64,000 nucleotides of DNA from Methylocystis sp. B8 (GTDB taxonomy: Bacteria; Pseudomonadota; Alphaproteobacteria; Rhizobiales; Beijerinckiaceae). Positions 51,194 to 55,258 of this stretch are shown piece by piece. Each line of letters opens with the position of its first letter. Within the stretch, counting starts at the first letter, position 1. The translations under genes were made by a program, and so were the position numbers. The stretch covers positions 1 to 64,000 of the forward strand of contig NZ_VBTZ01000004.1 of NCBI RefSeq assembly GCF_005771425.1, read 5' to 3'. The notes below the pieces were generated by a model, which did no database searches, had not been told where the DNA came from, and was given only the letters and a program-made list of their open reading frames with translations.

Positions 51194-51507
51194 GGCGTCC
51201 CAACCTCGCGACGATGAGGTGCAGCTAAGACAATTCCTGGCAGCCTGCCCGCATTCCAACAGACGAACCCAATAATGTTGCACCGCACAATAAACAGGCC
51301 CGGCGACGACAAGGCGACGCCTCGACGCGGCTCGACGAGCGCGCAGGCCTTGCCAGCGGCGTTGCGAAAGAAGACCGCACGCTCGCCAAAACGCGCATCG
51401 CGAGCGACGCGACCCGCTACAGACGCCACGCGAGGCCGACGATCGGCCACAGATTGGCGAAGTTTGAAAAGATTGCCCCACGCTTCGATCATCATCACGC
51501 GACTCAT
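51190..51507 (-). CDS. possible small gene coupled to mnmE
   Basis: The 105-residue frame starts MSRVMMIEAWGNLFKLRQSV and has a natural Ala/Val/Arg composition. It ends in TGA overlapping the mnmE ATG (ATGA), the usual sign of coupling. I do not recognise a family and a ribosome-binding site directly before 51507 is not obvious. It may be a real leader gene or chance. Confidence 0.3.
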   Translation of the reverse strand: MSRVMMIEAWGNLFKLRQSVADRRPRVASVAGRVARDARFGERAVFFRNAAGKACALVEPRRGVALSSPGLFIVRCNIIGFVCWNAGRLPGIVLAAPHRREVGTP

Positions 51508-51691
51508 GCCATGCGCCCGTCACGCCGGCTATCTCCTTTCATTTTCCTAAAAACGCTAAAACTCGACGGTCACGATCAAAAGTTGGGTTTAGCAGGAACC
51601 ATTCGACGCATTGGCCGTTTCTGGTTCGCGAGTCTTTTCAACCGGTCATTTCAAAGTTCATATCCGCCGACGTAAGCACCGGAGAATTTCC
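51194..51691. other. intergenic region between mnmE and the exported cassette
   Basis: About 500 bases that hold the promoters of the mnmE operon (left) and the cassette (right). Apart from the doubtful small frame at 51190-51507 I see no clear gene, repeat or terminator. An AAAGGAGATA stretch lies near 51525-51535 on the minus strand, nine bases ahead of a GTG at 51523. Confidence 0.45.
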
Positions 51692-52066
51692 ATGTCCGTG
51701 CTTCGTATCTCGTGTCCGAAAAAATTTGCGCGCGTCGAAACGACGTATCGTGCAACAATTTTATTGAGCATTGGCTTCATGCTTTATCTCTCTCTCCAAG
51801 CAGCGCGCGCGCAAAGCACGATCGCCGACTACGATCGCATCGTCGCCGAAGCCAAGCGATGTATGGCGGCAGACGAGCCATGCATAGTCGCTGGCGGCGT
51901 CAAAGGCTGCCGGTGTCCGACCGCCGTGCGCGCCAGCCAAGCGCAACGCGTATCGGCGATGGCGCAAGGCGCCACGTGTCCGCAGATTGAGCGGCTCTAC
52001 TGCCCGCCTTTACGCGCCCCGCGTTGCATCGATGGTCGATGCGCCGCGGACGTTAATTCTCCATGA
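51692..52066 (+). CDS. exported Cys-rich small protein, first gene of the cassette
   Basis: The 124-residue protein has a hydrophobic signal (TILLSIGFMLYLSLQA) with cleavage after ARA at about 40. The mature part has eight cysteines (57, 64, 73, 75, 96, 104, 112, 117), in CMAADEPC, KGCRCPT, CPQIERLYCPP and RCIDGRC, so it should be disulfide-bonded. The ATG at 51692 has GGAGAA upstream. Some 50 bases separate it from the next gene, which starts with its own strong site. No known family recognised. Confidence 0.65.
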   Translation: MSVLRISCPKKFARVETTYRATILLSIGFMLYLSLQAARAQSTIADYDRIVAEAKRCMAADEPCIVAGGVKGCRCPTAVRASQAQRVSAMAQGATCPQIERLYCPPLRAPRCIDGRCAADVNSP

Positions 52067-52114
52067 CTGCCGTTAAACGCCGCGCTTTTTTGCAATTATA
52101 TCGAGGAGGTGAAA

Positions 52115-52936
52115 ATGTTTGCGATTGTCCAAAAACATTTAGCGCGAGTTCAAAGCGGGGGCGCGCGGAGCTCTCTCGCCGCATGGCTCTTTCTCGTTCT
52201 GGCCGCGCAACCCGCATCGGCCGACAAGACATATTATCTCGATGAATCGACCGACTTTACTGGCAATGGTTGCGAGAACGCCGACCTGAACGATGTGACG
52301 TCGAGCCTGCGAAGCTCTCTCAACTCCAATGGCTGGAGCGGGCAACGATGGACCAATTCAAACGCCTGGCCGCAGGATTATTTTGAATCCACGATGGCTG
52401 GATTATCCGGCGTCGACAACCTGTATGGCGACAACTTTCTACTCACGGTATACGCCGGCCACGGCAATCGTGCGCTCGTTCAATTCGGATTCATGCGCAA
52501 CGGACGCTGCACGGTCAATCTTGAAACACAGGCGCGGCTCGGTCTGCAGGGCGGAAACAAGGCCGTGTATGCCATGTATGTCACGAGCTGCACGCTGAAC
52601 CTCGATTCGCTTTCGCGCAACTTCAATCACGAAATTCGACAGCAGTTCGGCTATCACAATTCGCCCTCGGTCAAGGACGACCAGCCGCGCGATTTTTTCG
52701 AGGAGACGAACTCGAAGACCAATGCGAGAGCCTGGATCGACGAGATGGAAGATCGTCCTGGCTGGTTTACTGGCGACAATTCGCCGATCGCGCTGACGCA
52801 CGGGCTCGACTCAAGTCACTGCGACTGGGTTCGTGACACAGCCAAATTGCGTGGCGACTCGCTGCTTTTCACGCCGCCGGAGCCCTGGGGCTGGTTCTGC
52901 TGGATTATGTACGATCATGGCGCCAGCGGCTGCTGA
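52115..52936 (+). CDS. exported caspase-like protein (DUF6345-like)
   Basis: The 273-residue protein has a signal peptide (AAWLFLVLAAQPASA, cut after residue 36). Two elements recall the clan CD cysteine proteases (caspases, gingipains): a beta-strand ending with a His-Gly pair, LLTVYAGHGN (His116), and a second strand ending with a Cys, AMYVTSCTLN (Cys159). The pattern and the SDSSHCDW and WGWFCWIMYDHGASGC end resemble the DUF6345 family, whose activity is not known to me. Six cysteines occur in the mature part. The ATG at 52115 follows AGGAGGT by four bases. Confidence 0.75.
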   Translation: MFAIVQKHLARVQSGGARSSLAAWLFLVLAAQPASADKTYYLDESTDFTGNGCENADLNDVTSSLRSSLNSNGWSGQRWTNSNAWPQDYFESTMAGLSGVDNLYGDNFLLTVYAGHGNRALVQFGFMRNGRCTVNLETQARLGLQGGNKAVYAMYVTSCTLNLDSLSRNFNHEIRQQFGYHNSPSVKDDQPRDFFEETNSKTNARAWIDEMEDRPGWFTGDNSPIALTHGLDSSHCDWVRDTAKLRGDSLLFTPPEPWGWFCWIMYDHGASGC

Positions 52937-52956
52937 ATATTTTTTAGGAGGCTACT

Positions 52957-53964
52957 ATGAAAAATTTTTATCTCACCGCCCTCTTCGCATTTTCCACGTC
53001 GCTTGCAGTGACGGAAGCGCGCGCGCAAGAAACTTCCGACGTTCCGAAACGCGTGGCGACCTTTGAAATGAACTGGAAGAAGCGCGACGGATCAGCGATC
53101 TCGGATTTGGCCCGCTCGGCTGCCGAAATCCTCACCGGTCGCGACCTCCGAGCGAAGACTCCCGTCGTCGAACCGGTGAAAAATATCCGCGCGGGTCGTA
53201 TGCAAGTGATGATTCCCGACGCGCCTTCGCTCGAAATGACCTATCTGCCCGATTACGATGAATTGAGGATCGTCGACACGGAACTTTTTTCCGCGCGCGC
53301 CCCCGAGCGTGATCTCGCCCAAAGCGACGCAATGAAAATCGCCCGCAACGCTTTCGACATGCTTGCACAACGGAAGCTGATCGATCCGGCCCAATATGAT
53401 TGGGAAAAAGCCGATGTGGGCTTCACCTGGGTTGGCGGCGCTTCGCGCGCGTCAAAAGCCAGCGAGCGCAAGCGTGTTGAATATCGCATCACTCTACGGC
53501 GCGTGCTCAATGGCATCGAACTGGCGAATGCCGGCCTGCGTTTGGCCGTGCACGCCAATGGACGCTTGTCCGGCCTGCGACTGGGCGGCGTGACTGTTGC
53601 ATCGAAACAGGGAAGGCAAATGGAAGAGCCAACCGGACGTGGTCGTTGGCTTGAGCCAAAACAGTCGATGGACGCTCTACGCGGCCGCTTTGAGCGCGAC
53701 ATCGTCGCAGCTCAAAAGGCCAAAGCGAACATCGCATGGTCCAAGATCATGTATGTCATGCCGGAGAAGGAGCGTTCATCCGTCGTCGAACCGCTCTATG
53801 TCGTGTCCTATTCGCTACAGACGCCAACGCCCGAAAACGAAATGGCGGTCAGCCGTCGCAAAACGATCGGTTTCTCGCTTGTCGATGCGAATGCTCCGCC
53901 GGTCGACCTTACGCCGCCAACGCACGAACCGGCGCCTGACCAAACCCAGAAGCCTGGAAAATAA
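52957..53964 (+). CDS. exported partner protein with PepSY-like segments
   Basis: The 335-residue protein has a signal peptide (ALFAFSTSLAVTEARA, about 1-23). Its mature part contains DAMKIARNAFDMLAQRKLIDP, RVEYRITLRRVLNGIELANAGLRLAVHANGRLSGLRL (the ELANAGLRLAVHANGRLSGL pattern resembles the FTP/PepSY propeptide repeats), and KIMYVMPEKERSSVVEPLYVVSYSL. Such propeptide-like domains often keep secreted proteases inactive. The ATG at 52957 has AGGAGG upstream and lies 20 bases after the caspase-like gene. A propeptide or chaperone role is inference from the pattern and the neighbour. Confidence 0.7.
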   Translation: MKNFYLTALFAFSTSLAVTEARAQETSDVPKRVATFEMNWKKRDGSAISDLARSAAEILTGRDLRAKTPVVEPVKNIRAGRMQVMIPDAPSLEMTYLPDYDELRIVDTELFSARAPERDLAQSDAMKIARNAFDMLAQRKLIDPAQYDWEKADVGFTWVGGASRASKASERKRVEYRITLRRVLNGIELANAGLRLAVHANGRLSGLRLGGVTVASKQGRQMEEPTGRGRWLEPKQSMDALRGRFERDIVAAQKAKANIAWSKIMYVMPEKERSSVVEPLYVVSYSLQTPTPENEMAVSRRKTIGFSLVDANAPPVDLTPPTHEPAPDQTQKPGK

Positions 53965-53992
53965 CGACGGACGTTAAGGACGTTCAGGGCGA

Positions 53993-55258
53993 CTAAGTAT
54001 TCATCGAATCGAAGAAGCCCTGATTGTTCTTCGTCTCGCGCAGCTTTCCGAGTAAGAATTCGATCGCGTCGACCGTGCCCATCGGATTGAGGATACGCCG
54101 CAGCACATACATCTTCTTGAGGATATCGCTTGCAACAAGCAGCTCCTCCTTGCGGGTGCCTGAGCGCGTGATGTCGATCGACGGGAAGACGCGCTTATCG
54201 GCGACCTTGCGGTCGAGAATGATCTCGCTGTTGCCGGTCCCTTTGAACTCTTCGAAGATGACTTCGTCCATGCGCGAGCCGGTGTCGATCAGCGCCGTCG
54301 CGATGATCGTGAGCGAACCGCCTTCCTCGATATTGCGCGCCGCGCCGAAGAAGCGCTTCGGCCGCTGCAGAGCGTTGGCGTCGACGCCGCCGGTCAACAC
54401 CTTGCCGGACGACGGCACGACGGTGTTGTAGGCGCGCCCGAGCCGCGTGATCGAGTCGAGCAGGATCACCACGTCGCGGCGATGTTCGACGAGACGTTTC
54501 GCCTTCTCGATCACCATTTCGGCGACTTGCACGTGACGCACCGCCGGCTCGTCGAAAGTCGATGACACGACTTCGCCGCGCACGCTGCGCTGCATGTCGG
54601 TGACTTCCTCAGGCCGCTCGTCGATGAGAAGAACGATGAGATAGCATTCCGGATGATTAGTCGTGATCGATTGCGCGACATTCTGCAGAAGAACCGTCTT
54701 GCCGGTGCGCGGCGGCGCAACCACCAGCGCACGCTGTCCTTTGCCGATCGGCGCAACGAGATCGATGACGCGGGAAGACAGATCCTTCTTGGTCGGGTCT
54801 TCGATTTCGAGCTTGAGGCGCTCGTCCGGATAGAGCGGCGTCAGATTGTCGAAGGGCACCTTATGGCGCACCTTCTCCGGATCTTCGAAATTGATGCTGT
54901 TGACCTTCAAGAGCGCGAAATAGCGCTCGCCCTCCTTGGGGCTTCGGATCATGCCCTCGACCGTGTCGCCGGTGCGCAGTCCGAATTTCCGGATTTGCGA
55001 GGGTGAGACGTAGATGTCGTCGGGACCGGCGAGATAATTCGCGTCGGGCGAGCGCAGAAAGCCGAAGCCGTCCTGCAACACTTCGACGACGCCTTCGCCG
55101 ACGATTTCGACGTCCCGGCTCCCGAATTGCTTCAGGATAGCGAAGAGAAGCTCCTGTTTGCGCAGGAGAGAGGCATTCTCGACTTCATGCTCTTCGGCGA
55201 AAGCGAGGAGTTCGGCGGCGGACTTGGCCTTCAAGTCCGAAAGTTTAATTTCCCGCAT
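53993..55258 (-). CDS. rho: transcription termination factor Rho
   Basis: Rho is the hexameric RNA helicase that ends transcription. The 421-residue protein has the N-terminal Rho domain and the RNA-binding OSB fold ([27 protein letters not shown]). The ATPase follows with Walker [37 protein letters not shown] (Q- and R-loop region) and [34 protein letters not shown]. The [18 protein letters not shown] start at 55258 fits. hemJ and hemE lie next to it, as near the origin in relatives. Confidence 0.97.

What the first reader, a model, noticed from the sequence alone, without database searches (positions are those of the whole stretch)
51692..53964. Three-gene cassette of exported proteins inserted in the origin-proximal housekeeping region
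Three consecutive genes, each with a signal peptide and each with a good own ribosome-binding site, lie between mnmE and rho, a stretch otherwise made of conserved genes. They encode a small Cys-rich protein, a caspase-like GHG...SC protein and a partner with PepSY-like segments. All three would work outside the cytoplasm. The set looks like a secreted protease or toxin with its propeptide or inhibitor and a Cys-rich accessory protein. No homologue of the first gene is known to me.
Basis: partly seen in the sequence, partly recalled or inferred. Interest (0 to 1): 0.78.

Follow-up and report, generated by a model that had tools for sequence, protein, structure and literature searches.

The report
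Exported caspase-like protease with propeptide-like partner
Two closely related bacteria carry, between two housekeeping genes, a three-gene set whose second gene is predicted to make an exported protein-cutting enzyme with the fold of our own cell-death proteases, and whose third gene likely makes the separate partner that folds it and keeps it switched off.

The parts
51692..52066 (+). Gene 1: 124-aa exported Cys-rich protein, 8 conserved Cys (57, 64, 73, 75, 96, 104, 112, 117)
   Evidence: ORF and RBS; the 8 Cys are invariant in 14 aligned sequences; 13 homologues, none with a given function; no Pfam family at E<0.05 in any of 14 members
51681..51685 (+). Shine-Dalgarno-like GGAGA of gene 1
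   Evidence: read from the sequence
52115..52936 (+). Gene 2: 273-aa DUF6345 protein with predicted caspase-like fold and His116/Cys159 dyad
   Evidence: PF19872 36.3 bits vs cut-off 26.9; fold; dyad invariant in 116 of 116
52104..52111 (+). Shine-Dalgarno AGGAGGTG of gene 2
52460..52462 (+). Codon of His116 (predicted catalytic His, GHG motif after a predicted strand 110-114)
52589..52591 (+). Codon of Cys159 (predicted nucleophile, TSC motif after a predicted strand 152-156)
52957..53964 (+). Gene 3: 335-aa exported protein with PepSY/YpeB/propeptide-like predicted fold, no cysteine
52946..52951 (+). Shine-Dalgarno AGGAGG of gene 3
51299..51461 (-). Remnant of a Rieske-type oxygenase gene that is whole between rho and mnmE in many relatives; left border of the cassette
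   Evidence: blastn matches to relatives end near 51461; homology resumes at 53994, the rho end; full gene by motif in 15 of 32 resolved genomes

Best explanation
This is a three-gene, probably horizontally acquired set encoding a predicted exported cysteine protease with a caspase-like fold (gene 2), a separately encoded propeptide-like partner that likely folds it and holds it inactive (gene 3), and a small Cys-rich protein that would be an accessory (gene 1). Likely course: the three proteins are made from one transcript and cross the inner membrane by Sec. Gene 3, with a tandem PepSY/YpeB-like fold, binds gene 2 as a propeptide would, helps it fold and covers its active site. Removal or degradation of gene 3, as proposed for YpeB, frees the His116/Cys159 dyad outside the cytoplasm. 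Gene 1 may stabilise the complex or tune its redox state. Shown: sequence, gene layout, invariant dyad, recurrence and correlated divergence of the gene 2-gene 3 pair, purifying selection. Predicted: both folds, export. Inferred: proteolysis, binding, latency, release, and any role for gene 1.
Confidence: 0.57

Rival explanations
1. Gene 2 has the caspase-like fold but is not a protease: it acts as a binding scaffold or as a transpeptidase/ligase on envelope proteins, and gene 3 is a structural envelope partner.
For: YycI and YpeB, the best-understood fold matches of gene 3, act by binding partners (YpeB abstract; YycI recalled). An asparaginyl endopeptidase turned into a peptide ligase is among the fold matches of gene 2. 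L072 naturally has Ser in place of Cys.
Against: The dyad is invariant in 116 of 116 close relatives, and by eye 5 of 6 divergent loci keep both residues, which a pure scaffold would not need.
Confidence: 0.18
2. A secreted antibacterial or anti-predator effector protease with gene 3 as its immunity protein.
For: Effector-immunity pairs are also adjacent, mobile and patchy (recalled); genes 1 and 3 are in 2 of 39 genomes of the genus, in a variable site. PepSY proteins are thought to be inhibitors (PMC2954215 passages).
Against: No further Pfam domain on gene 2 that would deliver it, no PADLOC match. Gene 2 is very slow-evolving (dN/dS 0.073; mean identity 67% over 24 sequences), unlike polymorphic effectors (recalled). 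The predicted fold of gene 3 is that of YpeB and propeptides.
Confidence: 0.13
3. The three genes are merely co-transferred exported proteins without physical cooperation.
For: Gene 1 is rarely linked to the others outside the genus; 45 of 61 gene 2 clusters with a contig of at least 3 kb lack a listed partner; in three of six divergent loci the neighbour shows no profile likeness to gene 3.
Against: For genes 2 and 3: 23 coincidences vs 0.7, correlated divergence, an export-type neighbour in the same order or a fusion in 6 of 6 divergent loci, three of them with profile likeness. It remains quite possible for gene 1.
Confidence: 0.12

Closest known systems
Pfam DUF6345 (PF19872)
   Same: Gene 2 scores 36.3 bits against a cut-off of 26.9 over residues 62-213.
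   Different: The family has no described function; the term DUF6345 is in 0 papers of the library. The window's subfamily is 59-73% identical to named members from other lineages (Flavilitoribacter, Thermodesulfobacteriota, Aquabacterium, Vicinamibacteria) but far from the divergent members.
Clan CD cysteine peptidases (caspases, legumain, MALT1, CHAT)
   Same: Predicted fold, His after one strand and Cys after another, Gly before His.
   Different: No sequence match to any named family of the clan. Single short exported domain; partner in a separate gene. Specificity unknown.
SleB-YpeB (spore lytic enzyme and its PepSY partner)
   Same: Export-type enzyme plus separately encoded PepSY-fold partner; the YpeB C-domain is the best named fold match of gene 3. 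YpeB is needed for SleB stability (abstract) and may hold it inactive until YpeB is proteolysed (abstract).
   Different: The enzyme is a caspase-like protein, not a peptidoglycan lytic enzyme; no spore context; identity of gene 3 to YpeB is about 10% over the aligned part.
FTP/PepSY propeptides of thermolysin- and fungalysin-type metalloproteases
   Same: Propeptide chains of vibriolysin MCP-02 and an Aspergillus metalloproteinase match the fold of gene 3, weakly; 2 of 30 relatives match FTP at E<=0.1.
   Different: There the propeptide is in the same chain as a zinc protease (recalled); here it is a separate gene beside a predicted Cys protease.
Prokaryotic metacaspases / orthocaspases (Peptidase_C14)
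   Same: Caspase-like fold and His-Cys dyad; some metacaspases have an N-terminal helix that might be a signal peptide (passages of PMC3501461).
   Different: Gene 2 does not match Peptidase_C14, and no PepSY partner of metacaspases was met in the passages that I read.

Membership tests
Pfam DUF6345 (PF19872) | Profile score over the gathering cut-off | tested here: met
   36.3 vs 26.9 bits, E 5.2e-9
Clan CD peptidases | Caspase-like fold | tested here: met
Clan CD peptidases | His-Cys dyad at the ends of two neighbouring strands, Gly before His | tested here: met
   GHG and TSC invariant in 116 of 116, after predicted strands 110-114 and 152-156; that the two side chains face each other was not measured
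Clan CD peptidases | Peptidase activity with P1 specificity | not testable with these tools
   needs purified protein
Peptidase_C14 (caspase/metacaspase) | Sequence match to the family | tested here: not met
   Pfam scan at E<=1 gave DUF6345 only; NCBIfam none
PepSY / YpeB / FTP propeptide superfamily (gene 3) | Fold | tested here: met
PepSY / YpeB / FTP propeptide superfamily (gene 3) | Pfam match of the protein itself | tested here: not met
   0 families at E<=1; 16 of 30 relatives match PF16244 and 2 of 30 match FTP at E<=0.1
Trans-acting propeptide/inhibitor pair (works like SleB-YpeB) | Adjacent gene, same order, recurrent | tested here: met
   23 contig coincidences vs 0.7. In 6 of 6 divergent loci an export-type neighbour or fused region follows, with profile likeness to gene 3 in 3 of the 6
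Trans-acting propeptide/inhibitor pair (works like SleB-YpeB) | Physical contact, inhibition or folding dependence | not testable with these tools
   no complex prediction offered; needs experiment
Known anti-phage defence systems | PADLOC model match | tested here: not met
   0 families for all three proteins at E<=0.1

The most novel reading that the evidence does not exclude
DUF6345 is an undescribed family of secreted caspase-fold cysteine proteases that work as split zymogens: a separately encoded PepSY/YpeB-type propeptide in the next gene folds and silences the enzyme in trans. The pair has spread horizontally across several bacterial phyla and in this lineage has gained a disulfide-rich third subunit. 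To my knowledge it would be the first clan CD enzyme governed by a propeptide of the metalloprotease type.
Probability: 0.43. Interest if true: 0.75.

Novelty: new variant of a known kind. Interest (0 to 1): 0.6.

Why it matters
It gives a concrete, testable function to a domain of unknown function, extends the caspase fold to small exported two-gene modules in environmental bacteria, and suggests that PepSY-type propeptides, known with zinc proteases and a spore lytic enzyme, also govern a cysteine protease. Two short genes in a laboratory E. coli strain are enough for the test.

Tried and rejected
Considered and rejected or not followed: (a) anti-phage defence: no PADLOC match and all three proteins look exported. 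(b) Phage or plasmid cargo: no relative of genes 1, 2 or 3 in viral contigs and none of genes 2 and 3 in 72,556 plasmid records. (c) Gene 2 as an ordinary metacaspase: no Peptidase_C14 match. (d) Two weak gene 2 matches in G352 and G420 (E 5e-5 and 1e-4): the G352 one is, by eye, a lytic-transglycosylase-like protein that shares only a DF[ST]GNG...NGW stretch; not counted as relatives. (e) Naming gene 1: no Pfam family at E<0.05 for any of 14 members and no solved relative. (f) Gene 1 elsewhere in the phylum: only the own genome in 299, with at most 15 first-look candidates scored per genome. (g) More DUF6345 loci in the class of G180: only G180 itself in 303. (h) Solved structures by sequence for genes 2 and 3: none. 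(i) Linking the partners of the divergent loci to gene 3 by profile: hhalign failed; a shuffle test supports L067, L068 and L069 and not L070, L071 and L072.

Rows left out before counts: the contig-length comparison used the 120 listed gene 2 hits of 158, 106 of 109 gene 3 hits (P0121, which is the window, and P0161 and P0200, which have no contig length, left out) and 12 of 13 gene 1 hits (P0230 left out). The dyad count used the window plus the 115 of 120 listed proteins that are at least 230 aa. The gap tally resolved 32 of the 39 genomes of the genus; G012 was examined but unresolved and six were not examined. Alignments took the window plus 27 of 158 gene 2 hits and the window plus 29 of 109 gene 3 hits. 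The gene 2 search covered 37 of the 39 genus genomes.

Full report
OBSERVATION. The window has three consecutive + strand genes, 51692-52066, 52115-52936 and 52957-53964, between mnmE and rho, both on the - strand. Each has a Shine-Dalgarno-like stretch, the gaps are 48 and 20 bases, and each N-terminus looks like a Sec signal sequence (by eye and hydropathy).

THE SITE. In the window a remnant of the Rieske gene ends near 51461, and homology to relatives resumes at the end of rho, 53994. In the genus, gene 1 is found in 2 of 39 genomes, gene 3 in 2 of 39 and gene 2 in 2 of 37, always the same two. DUF6345 was found in 1 of 385 genomes of the class, the window's own, and in 2 of 299 of the phylum. 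G+C falls from about 0.65 on the mnmE side to 0.55-0.58 in the set, but rho on the other side is about 0.59, so composition says little. Horizontal acquisition into a variable site before the two species split is the simplest reading (inference).

SELECTION. Between the two species: gene 1 70.7% identity and dN/dS 0.421; gene 2 93.0% and 0.073; gene 3 84.2% and 0.172; mnmE 88.2% and 0.141; hemE 94.7% and 0.093; rho 100% and 0.006. Genes 2 and 3 are under constraint of the order of housekeeping genes; gene 1 is under less.

THE PAIR. Comparing listed gene 2 and gene 3 clusters by longest-contig length and source gives 23 coincidences (16 on contigs of at least 3 kb) against a mean of 0.7 (maximum 4) in 100 shifted controls. 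Named examples are Aquabacterium sp. A7-Y and a Vicinamibacteria MAG with locus tags VJU18_14105 and VJU18_14100. Over the window plus these 23 pairs, distances correlate with Mantel r 0.71, with 0 of 5000 permutations as high; shared descent contributes. Against this, only 16 of 61 gene 2 clusters with a contig of at least 3 kb and 9 of 28 with at least 10 kb have a listed partner; the faster divergence of gene 3 (44% vs 67% mean identity) may hide some.

DIVERGENT RELATIVES. In another family of the same phylum PF19872 is in 6 of 100 genomes. In all six loci the DUF6345 gene is followed directly, same strand, by an export-type gene of 309-357 aa (five loci), or carries a further region in frame (L069, 524 aa). 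Is that neighbour a relative of gene 3? A shuffle test with the gene 3 profile says yes for L068 and for the fused region of L069 (0 of 1000 shuffles as good), probably for L067 (3 of 1000), and gives no support for L070, L071 and L072 (617, 98 and 142 of 1000), where I see only a PepSY-like pattern by eye. Profile comparison with all five partners fails (5.6%), as does that with the fused C-terminus (4.5%). The fused protein matches DUF6345 at 36-241 and, under cut-off, YPEB_PepSY1-2 at 270-363; it has no signal peptide in its open frame. The two DUF6345 groups themselves are linked (hhalign probability 80%, E 1.4e-5), with the His and Cys motifs aligned. By eye five of the six keep both residues; L072 has Ser for Cys.

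GENE 1. Thirteen homologues, eight invariant cysteines in 14 sequences, no Pfam family at E<0.05, no solved relative. Outside the genus it shares a contig length with gene 3 once (P0239 and P0124, 6116 bases; 0.07 expected, 0.0075 at 3 kb or more) and with no listed gene 2. It is an accessory at most.

MECHANISM. I commit to a split zymogen: an exported cysteine protease of caspase fold whose folding and latency are governed in trans by a PepSY/YpeB-type partner. Probability 0.57. Proteolysis, contact and release are inferred.

NOVELTY. A search for DUF6345 found 0 papers. A search for 'caspase-like' together with 'PepSY' found one, on Leptospira invasion, seen in the listing only. A YcdB/YcdC search gave no relevant title among the 10 shown of 93. 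The library holds only open-licence papers, so absence there is not absence in print. I file it as a new variant of a known kind: a caspase-fold protease combined with a metalloprotease-type propeptide partner.

Noticed in passing
window 51461-53993 and the same gap in relatives (L018-L059): The rho-mnmE gap is a variable site across the genus: besides GNAT and Rieske genes it holds a 316-317-aa ORF in G018 and G021, TPR-like plus 343-347-aa ORFs in G030 and G024, and 7.2 kb in G007.
   Followed up: partly
G007:C1:600728-600859: A 44-residue fragment 73% identical to the C-terminal part of rho (residues 325-368) lies about 1.4 kb downstream of the whole rho in G007, as if an insertion had duplicated the end of rho.
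   Followed up: no
L072:3792-4634: A DUF6345 protein with FSSS in place of the SSC motif: a natural Cys-to-Ser difference at the presumed nucleophile, still followed by an export-type gene.
   Followed up: partly
L069:501-2072 (- strand): In-frame fusion of DUF6345 and a region that scores with the gene 3 profile above 1000 shuffles, in one 524-aa ORF without a visible signal peptide.
   Followed up: partly
window 52238-52350 (gene 2 residues about 42-79): The DFTGNG...NGW stretch of gene 2 resembles a stretch of a lytic-transglycosylase-like protein in G352 and a match in G420 (E about 5e-5 and 1e-4); possibly a shared metal-binding loop or convergence.
   Followed up: no
gene 2 residues 53, 132, 236, 262, 273: Five further cysteines besides Cys159 are nearly invariant (108-115 of 116), while gene 3 has none: an odd number that would leave one cysteine, or the nucleophile itself, free for redox control.
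   Followed up: no
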